Origin: a virus
IMG/VR virus record: IMGVR_UViG_3300027714_000008
Span: 1-64,000 of that record
Length of the DNA stretch: 64,000 bases
Strand: one strand, 5' to 3'
Positions 303 through 25,668 of this stretch are shown here, piece after piece; within the stretch, counting starts at the first letter, position 1, and each line of letters opens with the position of its first letter. The translations under genes were made by a program, and so were the position numbers. The notes beneath the pieces are model-generated. The model searched no databases and was not told the origin of the DNA. It saw only the letters and a list, made by a program, of their open reading frames with translations.

Positions 303-629
303 TTATGTCTTAGGTTTAGAGTACACTGTACTTACATAGAATGCAGTAACAATACCAGCAACCGATACAAAATATGTAGGAGCCATGCTTCCTAATATCT
401 TTGCCGCTTCAGGCACACCCATTAATATAGCAACGACTACTGCAAATGGATATAATAACATTCCACCTAAAGCAAACCATGCCATATTTCGCATTGCATC
501 TTGCTTTTTATCTGCATTTTCAATGCTAATCATTCGTTCGTGTCGATTTAATTCCGCATCTGTTATGATGCCGTCTCCGTCTAAATCAGCATCATTAAGT
601 ATGCTGTCAGTTTCTAGTTTTTTAGCCAT
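303..629 (-). CDS. EF-hand membrane protein
   Basis: This 108-residue protein has a perfect EF-hand loop near its N terminus (D15, D17, D19, G20, I22, E26), which should bind calcium. Two hydrophobic segments in the second half probably span the inner membrane. The start is fixed by a strong AAAGGAG ribosome site. A TATAAATA late promoter on the same strand lies 23 bases upstream, so late expression is likely. The gene points away from the curli operon and shares its promoter region. Its role is unknown; a calcium-responsive membrane protein is inferred only from the motif. Confidence 0.75.
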   Translation of the reverse strand: MAKKLETDSILNDADLDGDGIITDAELNRHERMISIENADKKQDAMRNMAWFALGGMLLYPFAVVVAILMGVPEAAKILGSMAPTYFVSVAGIVTAFYVSTVYSKPKT

Positions 630-651: not shown

Positions 652-659
652 TATTTATA
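652..659 (-). promoter_or_regulatory. T4-type late promoter for the EF-hand gene
   Basis: TATAAATA on the - strand matches the T4 late promoter read by gp55. It is one arm of the perfect 16-base palindrome TTATTTATATAAATAA at 651-666. Confidence 0.65.
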
Positions 660-677
660 TAAATAAAGTTATAAATA
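658..677 (+). promoter_or_regulatory. Tandem T4-type late promoters of the curli operon
   Basis: TATAAATA occurs twice on the + strand, at 658-665 and 670-677, just ahead of the 708-8416 operon. Spacing from the second copy to the first ATG is about 30 bases and includes a GGAGGAG ribosome site. With the - strand copy this makes a bidirectional late promoter region. Confidence 0.65.
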
Positions 678-707: not shown

Positions 708-986
708 ATGGATTTTTTATCATTAGTTGGTGACGTTGGATTTCCTATCGCTGGAGCGTTGGCGGCTGGAGGTTTTGTGTTTCTTACACTTAAATTTATC
801 CTAGCTGGTGTGACCGATTCTGTAACTACGTTAAAGAATATTATTGGATCACTAGACAATCGTGTACAAACAATGAATAACGATTTGGTAAAAATTGATG
901 CACTGTTAAGTTATGCGTTAAACGTTAAACCTAACATAGATAGAATTGCCGCTAATGAAGGTAAAGACGATGCAAGGCGTGATTAA
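708..986 (+). CDS. Holin-like membrane protein A (tandem paralogue)
   Basis: The ATG at 708 is chosen over an upstream GTG because it follows a GGAGGAG ribosome site. The 92-residue product has a short N terminus, one glycine- and alanine-rich membrane span (GFPIAGALAAGGFVFL), then a predicted coiled-coil tail with LDNRVQTMNNDLVKID. This small-span-plus-coil build is common in phage holins and spanin-like proteins but is not diagnostic. It resembles the next gene in order of parts (GFPI, span, LDN/MLDND), so the pair looks like a tandem duplication. It is first in the operon, ahead of csgF. Confidence 0.7.
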   Translation: MDFLSLVGDVGFPIAGALAAGGFVFLTLKFILAGVTDSVTTLKNIIGSLDNRVQTMNNDLVKIDALLSYALNVKPNIDRIAANEGKDDARRD

Positions 987-1312
987 TGGAAGTTGATTTA
1001 GCACAAGCGATAGGTGAATACGGATTTCCTATTATTGCCGCAATGGGCATGGGATATTTTATTTATTTTATATGGAAGTGGGTAACAGAAACAATTGATC
1101 CTGTTGTAGGTGAGACTATGTTTACATTAATCAGATTAGTTGATCGTATTCGCATGTTAGATAATGATATGATTCGTTTGAATAGTAAATTATCAATGGT
1201 ATTAGAATATAGATCCAAGATGGACGGCGAACAACAAAAAGAACTTGATGATATGGTTAACAAGTATCAATCACGTAGTGAAGCATTTAACAGTACAGGA
1301 GATGGTAAATGA
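986..1312 (+). CDS. Holin-like membrane protein B (tandem paralogue)
   Basis: The start overlaps the previous stop (TAATG), implying translational coupling. The 108-residue protein has YGFPIIAAMGMGYFIYFIWKW as a single span, followed by a charged coil containing RMLDNDMIRLNSKLSMVLEY. The same order of motifs is present in the preceding protein. It has no signal peptide cleavage site, so an inner-membrane protein with a cytoplasmic or periplasmic coil is likely. It may be a holin or an inner-membrane partner of the CsgFG channel encoded next; both are inference. Confidence 0.7.
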   Translation: MEVDLAQAIGEYGFPIIAAMGMGYFIYFIWKWVTETIDPVVGETMFTLIRLVDRIRMLDNDMIRLNSKLSMVLEYRSKMDGEQQKELDDMVNKYQSRSEAFNSTGDGK

Positions 1313-1770
1313 AAATACTAATAGCTTTAAGCACAATTTGTTTACTGACTTCTACCGAAGTTAATGCAGAACTTGTCCATAAGTTTAGTAGTCCATCTTT
1401 TAATGGTAATGGATACAGTAGTCACGTATTAAGTACAGAACAACTTATACACAATCGTAAAGAGGATGTTAAAGATAAAGCCGAGGCCGAGGCCAGACGT
1501 ATAGAAAGAGAATTAGGCAACACAACATTAAACAAATTTATTACAAACCTAGAGTCAAGAATATATGCGACGTTAAGTAAACAAATGGTAGACAGTATGT
1601 TTGCGGCATGTACAGGTGACGATTGTGCAACATCAGGAACTACTGAACTTGAAGGTAGTACAATCACTTGGGTAAAAGATAGTACCACTGGTTCAATAAC
1701 ATTGACTATATCAAACGTCGATGGAACTACTGAGATTACTATTCCCGGTGCTGGAGAATTTACGTTCTAA
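1309..1770 (+). CDS. csgF: CsgF-like curli assembly factor
   Basis: This 153-residue protein has a Sec signal peptide ending near VNA-E. The mature N terminus LVHKFSSPSFNGN matches the family pattern F-x-x-P-x-F-x-G-N of CsgF, which in E. coli inserts into the CsgG channel. The middle (LNKFITNLESRIYATL) and the C-terminal GSITLTISNVDGTTEITIPG also follow CsgF. An insert rich in E, A and R (KAEAEARRIER) and a two-cysteine stretch, CTGDDC, are extra to E. coli CsgF. It overlaps its neighbour on each side (ATGA, TAATG) and directly precedes csgG. The role should be as outer-membrane cap or chaperone of the channel. Confidence 0.85.
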   Translation: MKILIALSTICLLTSTEVNAELVHKFSSPSFNGNGYSSHVLSTEQLIHNRKEDVKDKAEAEARRIERELGNTTLNKFITNLESRIYATLSKQMVDSMFAACTGDDCATSGTTELEGSTITWVKDSTTGSITLTISNVDGTTEITIPGAGEFTF

Positions 1771-2564
1771 TGAGAATTGGTCTATTAATAATGTTGCTTT
1801 TCATGGGAGCGTGTGCAGACATAGAAGCTCCTATTAATGCTGTTCCTAAAGTGCAAGGTTCACCATTAGGAAATTCATTGCAAGATATGCCAGAGCTTGA
1901 TGGTGCTAAAATGACTATAGCAGTTTATCAATTTGCTGACAAGACAGGTCAAAGAAAGCCTGCTGACAATTCAAGTTTGTCAAGTGCAGTCACACAAGGT
2001 GGCGAAGTGTGGGTTATTAAGGCGTTACAAGATGTCGGTAACTCTACATGGTTTGAAGTAGTTGAAAGGGTCGGTCTTGATAATTTGATCAAGGAAAGAC
2101 AGTTAGTGCGTAATACAAGAGATGTTTATGAAAAGAACCTAAAGACAGGACCTACACCATTAAAGCCTATGGTGTTTGCAGGTTTAATATTAGAAGGCGG
2201 TATTGTCGGATATGATAGCAATGTTTCTACAGGTGGAACTGGTGCTAGGTATTTGGGTATCGGAATACAGACACAATACAGAGTAGATACAGTCACAATA
2301 GTTATGAGATTAGTAAGTGTTAGCACAGGTAAAGTATTACTAAGTGTAGCCACAGAAAAAACAATAGCTAGTCATAGTAATGGCGCAGATGTATTTAAGT
2401 TTTTTGATATGGGAACAAAATTAGTTGAGGCCGAATCTGGTTATAGCGTGAATGAACCAGTAAATTATGCAGTTAGAGCAGCGATTGAAGCTGGCGTTAT
2501 TGAATTGATAAACGAAGGAGCTAAGAAAGAATTCTGGAAATTCAAGGAACAAAGCAATGAATAG
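1770..2564 (+). CDS. csgG: CsgG-like curli secretion pore lipoprotein
   Basis: CsgG forms the nine-fold outer-membrane channel that exports curli subunits. The phage protein (264 residues) has a lipoprotein signal with Cys15 after LFMGA. It tracks E. coli CsgG through V-Y-x-x-x-D-x-T-G-Q, the A-L-x-D block, ERxGLxNLxxER, EGxIxGYxSNV, GGxGARYxGIG, TQYxxD and GYxxNEPV. It ends soon after the E. coli INDG/INEG region and lacks part of the C-terminal tail. Residues matching the E. coli constriction Y51, N55 and F56 are A65, S69 and L70, so the opening may be wider. It is coupled to csgF and to a curlin-repeat gene. Confidence 0.93.
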   Translation: MRIGLLIMLLFMGACADIEAPINAVPKVQGSPLGNSLQDMPELDGAKMTIAVYQFADKTGQRKPADNSSLSSAVTQGGEVWVIKALQDVGNSTWFEVVERVGLDNLIKERQLVRNTRDVYEKNLKTGPTPLKPMVFAGLILEGGIVGYDSNVSTGGTGARYLGIGIQTQYRVDTVTIVMRLVSVSTGKVLLSVATEKTIASHSNGADVFKFFDMGTKLVEAESGYSVNEPVNYAVRAAIEAGVIELINEGAKKEFWKFKEQSNE

Positions 2565-3279
2565 ACGTTTTAAAAAATATTTTTATATAACCACTATGTT
2601 AGGTCTATTGACTAGCCCTAGCTTTAGTAACGACATTTATATCTCACAAGTAGGTGATACACTAGACTTGGATATTGTGCAAGACGGACAAAACAACGTC
2701 ATTGGTACCTCTGGTCAAGCTGTTGTACTTGGTAAGACGAGTAATGCTTCAGACAATATGACATTCAGTATTACACAAACAGGTAACACAAACACTATTG
2801 CCGCACAAATATTAGGTGCGACTTATACAGGTACTTGGACATTCACTGGTGATAACAGTGATGTCATATTACTTTGTAGTAGTGCTGCAATAGGTAACTG
2901 TGATAGTGTAACACTCAATATTGCGGCTGTAGGTGATAACCAAGACTACACAATCAAGATAGGCGAGAACGCATCTGGTGATGGTGCAACAGTAAACTTC
3001 ACAGTAACAGACGATGATAACATTATATCAACTGATATTGATGGAACAAGTGCAGTGGTTACTGTTACTATTAATGGTGCATCTAGTCTTGAAACAACTG
3101 ACAGCACATTAGATATTGATATTGCTGGTAACGGAGATAGTATAGGACACACTATTGTATTCAATGCTACAGGTCGAGGTCACGCAGTAGTTCTTAATCA
3201 AAGTGGTGTATACGATAACATGATTAATCTTACCACGAATGGTGATAATCAAGCTATCAATATCACTCAATCAGACTGA
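2557..3279 (+). CDS. Curlin-repeat secreted protein 1
   Basis: The gene overlaps the end of csgG by 8 bases. The 240-residue product has an N-terminal signal peptide (cleavage near SFS-N) and no cytoplasmic domain. Curlin-like strand-turn repeats of the form I-x-Q-x-G-x-x-N are visible: ISQVGDT, IVQDGQNN, ITQTGNTN, LNQSGVYDN, TTNGDNQAINITQ. Repeats in the middle are degenerate and rich in D, T and N. A single pair CSSAAIGNC could form a disulfide. By family this is a CsgA/CsgB-type amyloid subunit exported through CsgG. The repeats are less regular than in E. coli CsgA, so self-assembly is unproven. Confidence 0.75.
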   Translation: MNRRFKKYFYITTMLGLLTSPSFSNDIYISQVGDTLDLDIVQDGQNNVIGTSGQAVVLGKTSNASDNMTFSITQTGNTNTIAAQILGATYTGTWTFTGDNSDVILLCSSAAIGNCDSVTLNIAAVGDNQDYTIKIGENASGDGATVNFTVTDDDNIISTDIDGTSAVVTVTINGASSLETTDSTLDIDIAGNGDSIGHTIVFNATGRGHAVVLNQSGVYDNMINLTTNGDNQAINITQSD

Positions 3280-4397
3280 TGTTGAGACTTTTATCATTAC
3301 TCATAGTAATGGCAACGCCAGTGTATGCAAACATTGGTGAGATAACTTCTGTTAATGGCAGTGGTGCTATTGAAAGAGGCGAAGATGCTATTGAAGCAGA
3401 GAAGGGCACAGGTATTGATATGCTTGATACTGCTGTTACTGCAAATGCCAATATGCGGATTAACTTTATAGACGATACAGTAGTTGACATAACACAACAT
3501 TCAAGACTTCTTATAGACGATTTTGTGTATGATCCTGCAAGTGGTAAAGGGTCTTTGGGTCTAAAGGCGACATTAGGCACTGTTCGTTATGCCAGTGGTC
3601 AGATAGCAAAGCGTAATAGACAGAACGTAAGAATTAGAACACCTTCTGCAACTATCGGTGTTCGTGGTACTGACTTTGTTATGGTCATAGATGAAATTGG
3701 TGGATCTATGATCACACTATTACCTAGCTGTGATACTGCTGGAATGTGTTATGTCGGAGAAATAACTGTCGAAACTGATGCTGGTTTTGTTTTATTAAAC
3801 CAAGCCTTTCAAGCCACAATAGCTTCCAATAGCATGAGTCCCCCAACAAAACCTTTATTATTAGACCTTGACGAATCCATGATAAATTCTTTATTGTTGT
3901 TGCGTAAAGTCAAACCATATGAAGAAGAAGTGGCAAAAATATTAAAGAAGAAAATTAAAGATGCAGACTTCTTAGGACTAGACTTCCTTCAATTCGATGG
4001 ACTAGACTATGATGCATTGACTGAGGAACTAGAAGGTATTTGGTTGACGGCATTAGATAACACTGACAGTCTATTACAAGACATGCTTATAGACATGCTA
4101 GATCAGCTTAATTCAGCTTTGATGCAATTGTTTTTAGATGAGCTTGCCACACAGAACTCGTCTATGTTGAGAAGAGAACAAAATGTGTACGGATTTGATC
4201 CTACGACTGGTATTACTTTAATGAACCAAAGCCCTAACTGGGTGTTTTCAAGACGTGACGACAACGGAAATAACTTTGTAGAGTTAACTTTAAATCAAGG
4301 ATATGGATATACCATAGACCTAAAACAAGGAGGCTGGGAATTGTATGACTATAGGTTGGGCGACAACACTGGTAATTCTATTAACATTACCCAATAG
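3279..4397 (+). CDS. FecR-domain exported protein
   Basis: The start overlaps the previous stop (TGATG). A Sec signal peptide (cleavage near VYA-N) precedes a FecR domain at about residues 40-150. Visible parts are RINFIDDTVVDI, HSRLLIDDFVYDP, LGTVRYASG, then IRTPSATIGVRGTDF, the family hallmark. The remainder (to 372) is acidic and helical, then ends in short Q/G/N stretches (LTLNQGYGY, INITQ) that look like curlin repeats. There is no FecR-type N-terminal helix binding a sigma factor, so it is a periplasmic or secreted FecR protein. Such genes often sit beside CHASE2 cyclases in bacteria (recalled, not checked), as here. Confidence 0.85.
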   Translation: MLRLLSLLIVMATPVYANIGEITSVNGSGAIERGEDAIEAEKGTGIDMLDTAVTANANMRINFIDDTVVDITQHSRLLIDDFVYDPASGKGSLGLKATLGTVRYASGQIAKRNRQNVRIRTPSATIGVRGTDFVMVIDEIGGSMITLLPSCDTAGMCYVGEITVETDAGFVLLNQAFQATIASNSMSPPTKPLLLDLDESMINSLLLLRKVKPYEEEVAKILKKKIKDADFLGLDFLQFDGLDYDALTEELEGIWLTALDNTDSLLQDMLIDMLDQLNSALMQLFLDELATQNSSMLRREQNVYGFDPTTGITLMNQSPNWVFSRRDDNGNNFVELTLNQGYGYTIDLKQGGWELYDYRLGDNTGNSINITQ

Positions 4398-4764
4398 CCT
4401 TTGGGCTAACGAACTGATATTAAGCCAAGTCGGTAATGACTTTACGTTGAATGTCGATCAAGATGGTAATAATCACAGTATCACATTCGATGTTGATGGT
4501 AATAATAATACTGCAAATATCACACAAACAGGTGCAGACAAAACTATGATCTTAGATTTTGAAGGCAATCCACACAACTTTAATGGCACTCAAACTGGTA
4601 GTGGCAACCATTATGTCTATATAGATATTAATACACCCAATAATCGTGGCACTGCACAAATAAATTCTACTCAAACAGGAAGCACAAGTCAAAGCTACAC
4701 TATTACAGGTACTTGCTCTAGTTATAATGGGTGTGCTTTGAATGTGACTCAAACAGGTAATTGA
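4345..4764 (+). CDS. Curlin-repeat secreted protein 2
   Basis: This 139-residue protein begins 53 bases before the FecR gene ends, in another frame, and its signal peptide (cleavage near LWA-N) is written in that overlap. The mature protein is almost all curlin-like repeats: LSQVGNDF, VDQDGNNHSI, ITQTGADK, GTQTGSGNH, STQTGSTSQ, VTQTGN. Spacing is about 20-25 residues, close to CsgA/B. A cysteine pair (CSSYNGC) mirrors that of curlin protein 1. It is shorter and more regular than the first subunit, so one may act as nucleator and the other as bulk subunit. That division is inference. Confidence 0.8.
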   Translation: MTIGWATTLVILLTLPNSLWANELILSQVGNDFTLNVDQDGNNHSITFDVDGNNNTANITQTGADKTMILDFEGNPHNFNGTQTGSGNHYVYIDINTPNNRGTAQINSTQTGSTSQSYTITGTCSSYNGCALNVTQTGN

Positions 4765-4765
4765 T

Positions 4766-6802
4766 ATGAAAAAACTATTAAGTCCTTGGTGGGCATTAAT
4801 CACTCTTATGGCATTAGTTTATATATTTGCTGTACCATCTAGCTTTGTTCAGAGTGTTAAACTAAACTACTTTGACACGCTTATAGTCAACCAAGAGCCT
4901 GTGCAAAACAATATATTCGTTGCAGAGATAGACGAAGCCACATTAGACAAGTACGGACAATATCCTTTCCCACGTAAAATATATGGCGATATAATAAGAG
5001 ACTTATATGATAGAGGTGCTGGACTTGTCGTATGGAATATTATGATGCCAGAAGAAGATCGCTTTGGTGGTGACGATTATATGGCAGATGTCATGCTAGA
5101 ACTGCCAGTCGTATTGCCTAGTAGACCTAGTAATAAAACAAAGAACGAGCCTATTAATCCAGGGGCGGCTATCATTAATGCTGATTACCTTGATGTGTTA
5201 TTACCTTATGGTGGCATTATTGCAAACGTTCCTGTTATAGAATATGCATCTGTTGGTGCTGGTATTGTATCTACAGAACCAGAAATTGATGGTGTAGTAA
5301 GGCGTATGTCCACAGTAGCAGTTGTTGATGGTACGTTATATCCAAGCCTTGCTTTAGAGACGTTACGTGTTCTTGCTGGAGATACAAACTTTCAGATTAA
5401 GTTACAACCCAATGGTGTAGAGAAAATGAGAATACCAAAATTTGGTATTATTCCTACTGATAATGAGGGTCGTGTATGGATTGATTGGAGTCAAAAAAGC
5501 CAGAATGTATCCATAGCAGATCTTCCTGATAATTTTAATGGTGCTATTGTTATTGTAGATGTGACTGCATCGGGTATATCTAATCCAATACCAACGGCTT
5601 CAGGCAGTGTATTTGCTGGTGAAACACAAGCGGCGGTATTGGGAACGATGATAGCGGGCACAAACATCAATAGACCAGACTGGGCTACGTCAGTGGAGCT
5701 AATTTGCCTTCTAGTGGGGTCTTTACTGCTTATTATTCTAAGTCGTTGGATGATAATAGGTTTAATAACAACGTTTATTCTTATTGGGTCTATTGTGCCA
5801 TACTCTATGTACGCCTATGCGACAGACAAGATATTAATAGATGTAAGCGCACCTGTTATAACATTTGTTATAATAGCTTTGCAAGTTTATGGTATTAAGT
5901 TTGTTCGTGAGTTCCTAGAGAAACAAGCGATTAAAAAACAGTTTGCTGGCTACGCTTCTAAAGAAGTTGTGGAGATACTACAAAAAAACCCATCTCTTAT
6001 TAAAGATGGTACTAAGAAAGAAGTTTCTATATGCTTCTCAGATCTACGTGGATTTACACCTTTAGGAGAATCATTTGGTGATAACGTAAAAGGACTAACA
6101 TTGATTATGAATAGTTACATGGATGCTATTACAAAACCTGTGCTTGAAGCCAATGGTATGATTATTAAATATATTGGTGACGCTTCAATGCATATTCATA
6201 ATGCGCCTATGGAAGATCCTAATCACCCTAAAACTGCCGTACAAACAGGACTAAACATGTTAAAAGCAGTGGAGAAGTTTAATGAGTATATTATATCCGA
6301 AGGGAGACCGCCTGTGGGTATGGGTGCTGGTATCAATACTGGTCTCGGTTACATTGGAGAAATGGGATCGACAGCCAGACACTCCTACGACATTCTTGGA
6401 GATGCTGTTAGCACCGCCGCAAGACTTGAATCCGCATGTAAAGGTTATGGAGTTGTATTGATTGTAGGACCTGCAACATACAAAGTCACCAAGGACGATT
6501 TCTTTTATTTAAAACTAGATGATTTAGCAGTGAAGGGTAAGACTGTAGGACTAGAAATATATACAGTCTTTGATGACATTAAAACACATTACAAGAAAAG
6601 TAAAAAGATGCACAACATAATGCATGAGCATTATCGTGCACAAGAATTTGACGATGCACTCAGTATGTGCCACACTTTACAAAAGCATTTTGACGAAAGA
6701 ATGGATGGCTATTATGAAATGTGGATTGAACGATGTGAGTTTATGAAAACACAGAAACTACCAAAAGACTGGGATGGAATTTTCGTCGCCACTACTAAAT
6801 AA
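4766..6802 (+). CDS. CHASE2-domain class III adenylate cyclase
   Basis: The 678-residue membrane enzyme has an N-terminal span (about 8-27), a periplasmic CHASE2 sensor (about 45-300; VAEIDEATLDKYGQYPFPR is typical), three spans (about 308-378) and a class III cyclase domain (about 415-605). The metal aspartates are in FSDLRGFT and YIGDASM. Adenine-specifying Lys and Asp are kept (IIKYIGD and SYDILGD), so cAMP is the expected product. In GDAVSTAARLE a serine replaces the usual transition-state asparagine, while the arginine is kept. It follows the FecR and curlin genes by 1 base. A virus-encoded cyclase could alter host second-messenger state. Confidence 0.88.
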   Translation: MKKLLSPWWALITLMALVYIFAVPSSFVQSVKLNYFDTLIVNQEPVQNNIFVAEIDEATLDKYGQYPFPRKIYGDIIRDLYDRGAGLVVWNIMMPEEDRFGGDDYMADVMLELPVVLPSRPSNKTKNEPINPGAAIINADYLDVLLPYGGIIANVPVIEYASVGAGIVSTEPEIDGVVRRMSTVAVVDGTLYPSLALETLRVLAGDTNFQIKLQPNGVEKMRIPKFGIIPTDNEGRVWIDWSQKSQNVSIADLPDNFNGAIVIVDVTASGISNPIPTASGSVFAGETQAAVLGTMIAGTNINRPDWATSVELICLLVGSLLLIILSRWMIIGLITTFILIGSIVPYSMYAYATDKILIDVSAPVITFVIIALQVYGIKFVREFLEKQAIKKQFAGYASKEVVEILQKNPSLIKDGTKKEVSICFSDLRGFTPLGESFGDNVKGLTLIMNSYMDAITKPVLEANGMIIKYIGDASMHIHNAPMEDPNHPKTAVQTGLNMLKAVEKFNEYIISEGRPPVGMGAGINTGLGYIGEMGSTARHSYDILGDAVSTAARLESACKGYGVVLIVGPATYKVTKDDFFYLKLDDLAVKGKTVGLEIYTVFDDIKTHYKKSKKMHNIMHEHYRAQEFDDALSMCHTLQKHFDERMDGYYEMWIERCEFMKTQKLPKDWDGIFVATTK

Positions 6803-6810
6803 GGAAAGAA

Positions 6811-7533
6811 ATGGAAAATATTAAACGAAGCCACGAAATGGCTATAATTGCTAAAGTTGCATACGAAGATAAGGCTAAAGCAAAAGCAGTATTCGAGGCA
6901 ATGGGATATAGCAAACATGAGTTCATTGAACATAATGGAGCGCAGTGCCACGTCGTATGGAACGATGAAGAAGTAATCATTGGATTTCGTGGAACTGAGC
7001 CTGATGAATTTTCAGATATTAAAGCAGACCTTAACGCTATACCAAAAAAATGGGAAGCTGGTGGTTTGGTTCACAAAGGATTTTGCAATGAGCTAGACAA
7101 GGTTTGGACACAACTATCTTTGGTATTAAAAAAAGAACTGAAAGATCGTAAACTCTTTATCACAGGTCACTCATTGGGTGCGGCTATGGCAACCTTGGCG
7201 GCAAGTAAACTAGAGAAATCCTGTACTTGCCTATACACATACGGAAGTCCTAAAGCTGGGAGTAGAAGTTTTGTTAAGTCTATCGACGTACTACATTACC
7301 GCTTTGTTAATAATAACGACGTTGTGGCAAAAGTACCATTTTCGTTTCTTGGATACAGACACCACGGAGAACTACGTTACATAAACTACTATGGTAACAT
7401 AAGAAAGATGACTAAATGGCAAAGAGTCAAAGACCAATTCAGAGGTCGGTGGCGTGCTATAAAGAAATGGCAAATGTTCGATGGTGCTTATGACCATGGG
7501 ATGGATAATTATAAAAAATATTTAGGAAAATAA
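6811..7533 (+). CDS. Class 3 lipase-like alpha/beta hydrolase
   Basis: The protein (240 residues) follows the lipase-3 fold. It has the oxyanion motif GFRGTEP, the nucleophile elbow GHSLGAA (Ser near residue 117), the Asp in NNNDVVAKVP and a downstream His in GYRHHGELRYI. No signal peptide is visible, so it acts in the cytoplasm or is released at lysis. It sits 8 bases after the cyclase and belongs to the same operon. Substrates are probably membrane or storage lipids. A role in membrane breakdown at lysis is plausible from context only. Confidence 0.85.
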   Translation: MENIKRSHEMAIIAKVAYEDKAKAKAVFEAMGYSKHEFIEHNGAQCHVVWNDEEVIIGFRGTEPDEFSDIKADLNAIPKKWEAGGLVHKGFCNELDKVWTQLSLVLKKELKDRKLFITGHSLGAAMATLAASKLEKSCTCLYTYGSPKAGSRSFVKSIDVLHYRFVNNNDVVAKVPFSFLGYRHHGELRYINYYGNIRKMTKWQRVKDQFRGRWRAIKKWQMFDGAYDHGMDNYKKYLGK

Positions 7534-7536
7534 AAA

Positions 7537-7998
7537 ATGTATGAATATAGATCTACCATTAATAAAATAATAGACGGAGATACAGTCGATGTTGACATTG
7601 ATTTGGGATTTGGTGTTGTACTTTCGAATGAGCGTGTTCGTATTATGGGTATTGATACACCTGAAAGTCGAACTAGTGATAAAGTCGAAAAAGTATTTGG
7701 TCTTGCCGCAAAATACAGATTGAAAGAGCTATTGGGTGCTAAACCAATTCTTAAGACTGTGATGACTAAAAAGGGAGAAGATATGAAGGGTAAGTTTGGT
7801 CGTATCCTAGGAGACTTCCTCACAGATGATGGTGTGCGAATTACACAAATAATGATTGACGAAGGCCATGCCGTACCATATACAGGTCAGAATAAAGATG
7901 ATGTACTAGAACTACACATGATTAATAGAAAAAGACTAATAAGCGAAGGGGTAGTTGACGAGCAAGCAGTTCTTTACGCTGCATCATTTAATAAATGA
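7537..7998 (+). CDS. Staphylococcal-nuclease-like (thermonuclease) protein
   Basis: The 153-residue protein shows the SNase fold pattern: IIDGDTVDVDID, then VRIMGIDTPESR with the catalytic Arg/Asp/Glu set, then GKFGRILGDF carrying the second Arg. No signal peptide is present, so it is a cytosolic nuclease, perhaps for host DNA or RNA turnover. Such genes are frequent in marine T4-like phages. It lies 3 bases after the lipase and overlaps the next gene by ATGA. Confidence 0.83.
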   Translation: MYEYRSTINKIIDGDTVDVDIDLGFGVVLSNERVRIMGIDTPESRTSDKVEKVFGLAAKYRLKELLGAKPILKTVMTKKGEDMKGKFGRILGDFLTDDGVRITQIMIDEGHAVPYTGQNKDDVLELHMINRKRLISEGVVDEQAVLYAASFNK

Positions 7999-25014: not shown

Positions 25015-25668
25015 CTATATAATATATTTGATACTCGTTGCTTTCATTTTGTACTTCCGTCTTTCCTTCTTATTGAGAGGATATACGAATATGTGTTTGC
25101 CTTTACTATGAACGTACTCTGCTTCGCCGTTCTCTAGCTGTTCCTTAATTTTTTGTGCGTATGGTTTAAGACGCCTCTCGCCATTCTTAGGTGTGTAGTA
25201 CGTCCGTATTGTCTTTTCGTGATACAGACGATCATTACCTTTAATCTTTATCGATCTACCCTTTGCAGTCATACCCAAATAGTAAAAGTTTGATGCATAG
25301 TATATAGTGCCTACATGACCTTGCATACTGTCAGCATAACTGACAACAACTTTACAGTCTGTGTTCTGTCTCAACCAATTGATTGTCTGAGATATGAAGT
25401 AACTTTCGGTATTCTTCGGAGTATCATCAATACAGCACAATCGTCTTAGTTCAACAACGTCTGTTTCAACTTCCCCATACTTCTTCCAAACACTTGCCAT
25501 GCCTAGATACCCATATATCATAACACCAATCATTTCAGCCTTATCAAAAAGACCGAAACAGAAACGAGTAGCCAAGCCATTTGTGTTCTTGGAGTAATGC
25601 CAATCAACAACAAATGGTGTAGCTTCTTGTATAGTTATTGGTGATACAGTGTAATCCGTAACGCTCAT
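25015..25668 (-). CDS. Mom-like DNA base modification enzyme
   Basis: The 217-residue protein follows the Mu Mom-like GNAT family: WHYSKNTNGLA at the N terminus, ELRRLCCIDDTPKNTESYFI in the centre, VVSYADSMQGHVGTIYYASNF and KTIRTYYTPK toward the end. Mom-type enzymes modify adenine in phage DNA and protect it from restriction. The C terminus is strongly basic, fitting DNA binding. It lies directly before gp43 in the replication cluster. Recognition is by motif memory; the exact chemistry is unknown. Confidence 0.75.
   Translation of the reverse strand: MSVTDYTVSPITIQEATPFVVDWHYSKNTNGLATRFCFGLFDKAEMIGVMIYGYLGMASVWKKYGEVETDVVELRRLCCIDDTPKNTESYFISQTINWLRQNTDCKVVVSYADSMQGHVGTIYYASNFYYLGMTAKGRSIKIKGNDRLYHEKTIRTYYTPKNGERRLKPYAQKIKEQLENGEAEYVHSKGKHIFVYPLNKKERRKYKMKATSIKYII

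What the first reader, a model, noticed from the sequence alone, without database searches (positions are those of the whole stretch)
1309..4764. Virus-encoded curli-type secretion cassette (csgF, csgG and two curlin-repeat proteins)
Seen: four coupled genes encode a CsgF-like factor, a CsgG lipoprotein and two signal-peptide proteins made of I/V-x-Q-x-G-x-x-N repeats. Known: CsgG with CsgF exports amyloid subunits in bacteria; I recall CsgG/CsgF-like genes from some marine T4-like phages, unchecked. Inference: the phage exports fibres late in infection, or uses the pore for lysis or superinfection exclusion. A phage that carries both pore and substrates is the best candidate for a novel system here.
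Basis: partly seen in the sequence, partly recalled or inferred. Interest (0 to 1): 0.93.

Follow-up and report, generated by a model that had tools for sequence, protein, structure and literature searches.

The report
Phage-carried curli export gene set
This uncultured marine T4-like phage carries a complete curli-type set of genes for exporting sticky protein fibres through the outer membrane; the set is real, but the same gene set is already published for phages of SAR11 and OM43 bacteria, and what is new here is mainly evidence that it is switched on late in infection and that one fibre protein is very variable.

Summary
Profiles confirm CsgF (1309-1770), CsgG (1770-2564) and a curlin-repeat protein (4345-4764). 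The other curlin (2557-3279) matches weakly itself, but 39 of 55 in its alignment match. The host sequence is a T4-like virus record.

It is not a novel system. The same order (two small proteins, csgF, csgG, curlin, FecR, curlin, cyclase) is in HTVC008M and Melnitz and was published in 2020-2022.

Added here: (1) T4-type late promoters precede the operon's first gene (26 of 60 phage clusters against 1.6% background), and this phage encodes the late sigma factor, so expression is probably late. (2) The second curlin ranges from 108 to 502 aa, usually behind a conserved N-terminus, which fits variable surface fibres better than a bare pore. (3) A Hyphomonas sp. metagenome-assembled genome has csgF-csgG-curlin-FecR-cyclase in this order, sister to the phage clade. 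(4) The published "histidine kinases" have no kinase profile. (5) Most phage cyclases replace a catalytic Asn by Ser.

Most likely it builds surface fibres on infected cells before lysis. No fibre has been seen.

The parts
658..677 (+). two TATAAATA boxes (658-665 and 670-677), T4-type late promoter -10 elements, ahead of the first gene of the unit
   Evidence: 18 sites in the window against 8.2 expected, no shuffle of 100 reaches 18; the same motif upstream of the first gene in 26 of 60 phage clusters against 1.6% background
708..986 (+). small protein 1: one predicted membrane helix then a helical stretch; ATG at 708 after GGAGGAG (ORF list starts at GTG 678); paralogue of small protein 2
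   Evidence: (phrog_18771 E 3e-30); in the phage collection found only in the phages that also carry the T8SS; no histidine kinase domain match
986..1312 (+). small protein 2, same family as small protein 1
   Evidence: (phrog_18771 E 2e-30)
1309..1770 (+). CsgF, extracellular factor that caps the pore; keeps F26, P29, F31 and G33 in all eight phage rows
   Evidence: Pfam CsgF E 1.5e-11; PMC10133297 reports that E. coli CsgF F24, F26 and F31 are needed for binding CsgG
1770..2564 (+). CsgG, outer-membrane lipoprotein pore (lipobox LFMGAC)
   Evidence: E 3.9e-54; (solved CsgG chains E 2.5e-52)
2557..3279 (+). curlin 1, conserved substrate with signal peptide and degenerate curlin repeats
3279..4397 (+). 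secreted FecR-domain protein with no N-terminal anti-sigma domain seen; predicted beta tail with a curlin-like ending (...GxNxIxIxQ)
   Evidence: Pfam FecR E 3.5e-8; model, tail pLDDT about 85; tail conserved; FecR part resembles PupR and a putative anti-sigma factor
4345..4764 (+). curlin 2, variable substrate (139 aa here, 108-502 aa in other phages)
   Evidence: Curlin_rpt E 8e-7
4766..6802 (+). CHASE2 sensor with class III adenylate/guanylate cyclase domain; Ser at the place of the transition-state Asn
   Evidence: CHASE2 E 6e-32, cyclase E 1.3e-16
6811..7998 (+). class 3 lipase (6811-7533) and a nuclease-like gene (7537-7998), same strand with gaps of 8 and 3 bases; may be co-transcribed, link to the module not shown
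   Evidence: (Lipase_3 E 2.7e-22); lipase next to the module in a minority of relatives

Best explanation
A complete, compact type VIII (curli-type) secretion operon carried by a T4-like phage and transcribed as one unit in the late phase of infection. CsgG forms the outer-membrane pore, CsgF docks on it from outside, and the two curlins cross the inner membrane by the host Sec system, pass the pore and assemble into amyloid-like fibres on the infected cell. Curlin 1 is the conserved subunit. Curlin 2 has a conserved start (usually NDIYxxQxGDxxxLxIxQDG) but a body that differs from phage to phage, so it probably gives the fibre its specific surface. The secreted FecR protein and the CHASE2 cyclase act as a pair that senses the envelope or the fibre and makes a cyclic nucleotide. 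Of the possible benefits I rank first the holding together or coating of infected cells and their debris so that released virions meet neighbouring host cells; competitor exclusion comes second. Shown by computation: gene identities, order, conservation, late promoters. Inferred: export, fibre formation, the sensing pair, the benefit.
For: Profile matches for CsgF, CsgG, curlin, FecR, CHASE2 and cyclase. Of the 90 phage-type loci surveyed nearly all keep csgF-csgG-curlin 1-FecR-curlin 2-cyclase in this order as far as their contigs reach. Curlin 1 predicted as a beta-strand stack. Both curlins share a homologous N-terminal region after the signal peptide, as two substrates of one exporter would. 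CsgF keeps F26 and F31, needed for CsgG docking in E. coli. Late promoters at the first gene only: 26 of 60 clusters against 1.6% background, and 0 of 256 upstream of csgG, FecR, curlin 2 and small protein 2. In this window the same motif precedes the tail sheath, portal and tail tube genes, and gp55 (late sigma, E 6e-49) and gp45 are encoded.
Against: No fibre has been seen: the Melnitz authors saw no clumping under their conditions (PMC9004378). No CsgE gate in this record, although Alphaproteobacteria also lack it (PMC3521004). No curlin matches a solved amyloid structure. No cyclic-nucleotide-binding protein was found in the record, so the cyclase would need a host receptor. The virus record is 98.7 kb and probably incomplete.
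Confidence: 0.6

Rival explanations
1. The CsgGF pore works as a lysis-timing pore (pinholin-like) or secretin, as proposed for Melnitz, and the curlins are passengers.
For: Late transcription would fit a lysis role; the two small membrane proteins are linked to the module in most loci where the flank is long enough and one weak match is to a holin family (E 0.06). PMC9004378 argues for this.
Against: CsgG is an outer-membrane lipoprotein, whereas holins act in the inner membrane. Curlin substrates, FecR and cyclase are kept next to the pore across the phages surveyed, and CsgF keeps its docking residues. PMC9004378 states that Melnitz lacks csgA/csgB, but the deposited Melnitz record itself names two curlin-associated repeat proteins.
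Confidence: 0.15
2. The fibres block superinfection by competing phages on the infected cell.
For: Variable curlin 2 bodies look like surface parts under diversifying selection; suggested in PMC9599517.
Against: Late promoters make protection start only after replication has begun, whereas the T4 exclusion genes imm and sp are known (from general knowledge) to act early.
Confidence: 0.25
3. The open pore is used to take up nutrients or cofactors (cobalamin, siderophores), with FecR as an iron-linked regulator.
For: Suggested in PMC9599517 and PMC7029224 because CsgE is absent and FecR present.
Against: Here FecR is a secreted protein whose FecR domain follows the signal peptide with no N-terminal anti-sigma domain match and no partner sigma gene seen beside it. 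Late transcription is a poor time for uptake to pay. Substrates are conserved. FecR-domain proteins paired with CHASE2 sensors occur in a Burkholderia biofilm operon (PMC5192318).
Confidence: 0.07

Closest known systems
Pelagiphage T8SS module (Wittmers et al. 2022, PMC9599517; Myoviridae and HTVC023P-type Podoviridae)
   Same: Same order: one or two small genes (called HK there), csgF, csgG, csgA/B, FecR, csgA/B, adenylate cyclase; no CsgE; alphaproteobacterial affinity.
   Different: The small pair has no kinase domain match here. A bacterial operon with FecR and cyclase is found (L095), which that paper said does not occur in bacterial T8SS operons. Late promoters and the Asn to Ser change in the cyclase are not mentioned in the passages read.
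Pelagibacter phage HTVC008M and Methylophilales phage Melnitz
   Same: Every gene from small protein 1 to the cyclase has a homologue in the same order (CsgG 52% and 50% identity).
   Different: Window curlin 2 is short (139 aa against 441 and 341); HTVC008M cyclase keeps the canonical Asn and lacks the C-terminal extension; major capsid protein only about 60% identical, so this is a different phage lineage.
Hyphomonas sp. TMED17 operon (L095, bacterial metagenome-assembled genome, 705-kb contig)
   Same: csgF-csgG-curlin-FecR-CHASE2 cyclase in the same order; CsgG is the sister of the phage clade (support 99/89); the cyclase ends in the same way (DWDGVFKMTTK).
   Different: One large curlin of 504 aa, no small pair, canonical Asn in the cyclase, no curlin-like tail on FecR, ordinary bacterial neighbours.
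E. coli curli csgBAC-csgDEFG
   Same: CsgG pore, CsgF, curlin-repeat substrates.
   Different: No CsgD, CsgC or CsgE found; adds FecR and a cyclase; curlins longer and more degenerate.

Membership tests
Type VIII (curli) secretion system | CsgG-family outer-membrane lipoprotein pore | tested here: met
   Pfam CsgG E 3.9e-54; solved CsgG chains E 2.5e-52; lipobox LFMGAC
Type VIII (curli) secretion system | CsgF with the N-terminal peptide that docks on CsgG | tested here: met
   Pfam CsgF E 1.5e-11; F26, P29, F31, G33 invariant in eight phage rows; F24 not kept
Type VIII (curli) secretion system | Curlin-repeat substrate(s) with signal peptide in the same operon | tested here: met
   Curlin 2 E 8e-7 above cut-off; curlin 1 through its relatives, 39 of 55
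Type VIII (curli) secretion system | CsgE periplasmic gate | tested here: not met
   No match at E 10 in the record; not a required feature: Alphaproteobacteria lack it
Type VIII (curli) secretion system | Secretion of subunits and amyloid fibres on the surface | not testable with these tools
   needs expression and staining
Pelagiphage T8SS module | Order csgF-csgG-csgA/B-FecR-csgA/B-cyclase in a marine phage | tested here: met
Pelagiphage T8SS module | Histidine kinase upstream of csgF | tested here: not met
   The two upstream proteins are 93 and 108 aa from their ATG starts, with one membrane helix, and match no histidine kinase catalytic or dimerisation domain in 18 members. A homologous pair stands at this place in HTVC008M, so this probably corrects the name rather than excluding the window
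FecR anti-sigma regulator (iron signalling) | N-terminal anti-sigma domain and partner FecI sigma gene | tested here: not met
   Only the FecR domain matches, directly after a signal peptide; no sigma gene adjacent
Class III adenylate cyclase | Two metal Asp, substrate Lys and Asp, transition-state Asn and Arg | tested here: inconclusive
   All kept except Asn, which is Ser here and in 42 of 48 readable phage sequences; activity not testable here

The most novel reading that the evidence does not exclude
Phages build a late-expressed, phage-specific amyloid coat: a conserved curlin core plus a hypervariable second curlin are displayed through a phage-made CsgGF pore, while the FecR protein, ending in a curlin-like repeat, ties the fibre to the CHASE2 cyclase so that fibre assembly is sensed and reported by a cyclic nucleotide during the last phase of infection.
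Probability: 0.25. Interest if true: 0.75.

Novelty: already known. Interest (0 to 1): 0.38.

Why it matters
The hosts of the known relatives (SAR11, OM43) are streamlined ocean bacteria reported to have no curli of their own, so the phage gives the infected cell an ability it otherwise lacks. What the module is for is an open question in the three papers cited. Late promoters narrow the time window, the variable second curlin points to a surface role, and the Hyphomonas operon gives a bacterial counterpart in which the FecR-cyclase pairing could be tested.

Tried and rejected
Near-identical DNA in phage records: none. Curlin 1 against solved structures: no significant hit. The idea that the FecR tail is a true curlin repeat: motif and predicted beta strands agree, profile comparison with the curlin 2 C-terminus gives P 5e-4 but probability only 32%, comparison with curlin 1 fails, a tail profile finds no curlin protein, and only 1 of 49 members hits Curlin_rpt (E 0.039): kept as suggestive only. 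The idea that the small pair is a holin of a known family: no Pfam match. A cyclic-nucleotide receptor in the phage: none found. Search for further bacterial operons with FecR of the phage type in 385 Alphaproteobacteria and 105 genomes of the same family: only the Hyphomonas genome. tRNA, tmRNA and known RNA families in the window: none. CsgF profile against solved structures gave only a spurious hit to a designed repeat protein.
Full report
What is there. The window is the first 64 kb of a 98.7-kb virus record. It encodes T4-type gp17, gp20, gp23, tail sheath, tail tube, gp43, gp44/45/46, UvsW-like helicase and late sigma gp55, so it is a T4-like myovirus. Its capsid protein is 67% identical to Phage C48C1 and about 60% to Melnitz and HTVC008M. 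On the + strand, opposite to most of the genome, lies a tight run of genes from about 708 to 6802 (perhaps 7998) that overlap or lie at most 8 bases apart. They encode two small membrane proteins, CsgF, CsgG, curlin 1, a FecR-domain protein, curlin 2, a CHASE2 cyclase, then a lipase and a nuclease-like protein.

Check of the observation. CsgG, CsgF and curlin 2 pass Pfam cut-offs. Curlin 1 alone does not, but 39 of the 55 aligned family members match the curlin repeat, it is related to curlin 2 over its N-terminal part (E 3e-30), and its model is a stack of short beta strands.

It is already known. HTVC008M and Melnitz carry homologues of all these genes in the same order, from the small pair to the cyclase. 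Zaragoza-Solas et al. 2020 (PMC7029224) reported csgF/csgG with hypothetical partners in pelagimyophages. Wittmers et al. 2022 (PMC9599517) reported the whole module, with both curlins, FecR and adenylate cyclase, in pelagimyophages and pelagipodophages. Buchholz et al. 2022 (PMC9004378) discussed it in Melnitz as a pore without substrates. The deposited Melnitz record itself names two curlin-associated repeat proteins, so the statement in that paper that csgA and csgB are missing does not hold.

(a) Timing. TATAAATA, the T4 late promoter box, occurs 18 times in the window against 8.2 expected, with none of 100 shuffles as high. Two copies lie at 658-677 just before the first gene of the unit; others lie just before the portal, sheath and tail tube genes. 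Over 60 phage clusters (CsgG below 90% identity), 26 have the box at the first gene of the unit against a background of 1.6% (p about 1e-30). Before csgG, FecR, curlin 2 and small protein 2 it is never found, 0 of 256. With gp55 and gp45 encoded here, late transcription of the operon is well supported, though not measured. The p-value treats clusters as independent, which they are not fully.

(b) Variable substrate. Curlin 1 is conserved in length (about 225-265 aa in most phages), while the second curlin runs from 108 to 502 aa with different repeat bodies, in most cases behind a common start. The slot between it and the cyclase sometimes also holds signal-peptide proteins of 490-636 aa without a Pfam match. 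A pore-only role would not need this.

(c) Bacterial counterpart. Of 74 bacterial csgG loci with a neighbourhood, only Hyphomonas sp. TMED17 (L095, 705-kb contig with ordinary bacterial neighbours) has csgF-csgG-curlin-FecR-CHASE2 cyclase together. Its CsgG is sister to the phage clade (99/89; its branch is long, so the place is not certain). Its FecR is by far the closest among 385 Alphaproteobacteria (1.7e-48 against 2.8e-32 for the next). PMC9599517 states that FecR and cyclase are not within bacterial T8SS operons; this is one counter-example, and it suggests that the phages took up the operon whole. The direction of transfer is inferred.

(d) The 'histidine kinases' are not kinases by these tests. 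The two small proteins are paralogues of about 90-120 aa with one membrane helix and no kinase catalytic or dimerisation domain match in 18 members. In 50,697 phage records small protein 1 is found only in the T8SS-bearing phages HTVC008M and Melnitz. In the fetched loci the pair lies upstream on the same strand in 41, downstream on the opposite strand in 20 and downstream on the same strand in 2; in 29 it was not seen within the fetched stretch. So it travels with the module; its role is unknown.

(e) Cyclase. The metal and substrate residues are kept, but the transition-state Asn is Ser in 42 of 48 readable phage sequences (36 by pattern and 6 read from the printed sequences). The bacterial L095 and six phages, among them HTVC008M, keep Asn. 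In mammalian cyclases this Asn is known to matter for catalysis (general knowledge, not looked up), so the phage enzymes may be slow or altered.

(f) FecR protein. The FecR domain directly follows the signal peptide, its model resembles the signalling domain of PupR and a putative anti-sigma factor, and no anti-sigma domain or sigma gene accompanies it. This speaks against the reading 'iron regulator'. A conserved C-terminal tail with predicted beta strands ends like a curlin repeat; the statistical support is weak. FecR-domain proteins paired with CHASE2 sensors occur in a Burkholderia biofilm operon (PMC5192318), which supports treating them as a sensing pair.

How it most likely works. Late in infection the phage makes a CsgG-CsgF pore and exports its curlins to the infected cell's surface. 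The purpose is inferred: aggregation or coating of cells before lysis is ranked first, competitor exclusion second, lysis timing third, uptake last.

Limits. All evidence is computational. The record may be incomplete. E-values from the locus searches are relative to the candidates only. Gene order was judged from profile hits on ORFs, and many contigs end inside the module.

Noticed in passing
L012:5971-6855 (Brevundimonas phage vB_BpoS-Domovoi, and four relatives): A CsgG homologue (Pfam E 1e-17) in jumbo Brevundimonas phages, mostly annotated hypothetical; the genes either side match no Pfam family, so no CsgF or curlin was recognised next to it.
   Followed up: partly
L013 (OR851715, 'Salmonella phage S.Kent 1-2-1'): A 1.5-kb contig deposited as phage that encodes a CsgG about 40% identical to the window's and enterobacterial in type; probably host DNA rather than a phage gene.
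   Followed up: no
L089, L090, L091, L092, L093, L094: Contigs filed under bacterial metagenome-assembled genomes (Rhodobacteraceae, Pirellulales, Pelagibacter, Flavobacteriaceae) carry the phage-type module and group with the phages; most likely misbinned phage contigs.
   Followed up: partly
L022:12002-13912, L052:11865-13652, L047:5612-7084, L065:12532-14370: Signal-peptide proteins of 490-636 aa in the slot between curlin 2 and the cyclase; those scanned match no Pfam family. Possible further surface proteins.
   Followed up: partly
window 303-629 (-): Small protein with a weak EF-hand-like motif and a membrane segment, with its own TATAAATA box at 652-659 pointing away from the T8SS unit; a relative lies near the module in about 15 loci.
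   Followed up: no
window 25015-25668 (-): Mom-like DNA modification protein (phrog_1384, E 1.5e-62), a possible anti-restriction gene.
   Followed up: no
L081, L083, L085, L086: The two small genes are interleaved with csgF and csgG (small 2, csgF, small 1, csgG), a different arrangement from the other phages.
   Followed up: no
L011:9649-11700 against L010:9850-11736: The Melnitz cyclase has a CHASE2 half like that of HTVC008M and a catalytic half like that of the window group, which looks like domain exchange between phage lineages.
   Followed up: no
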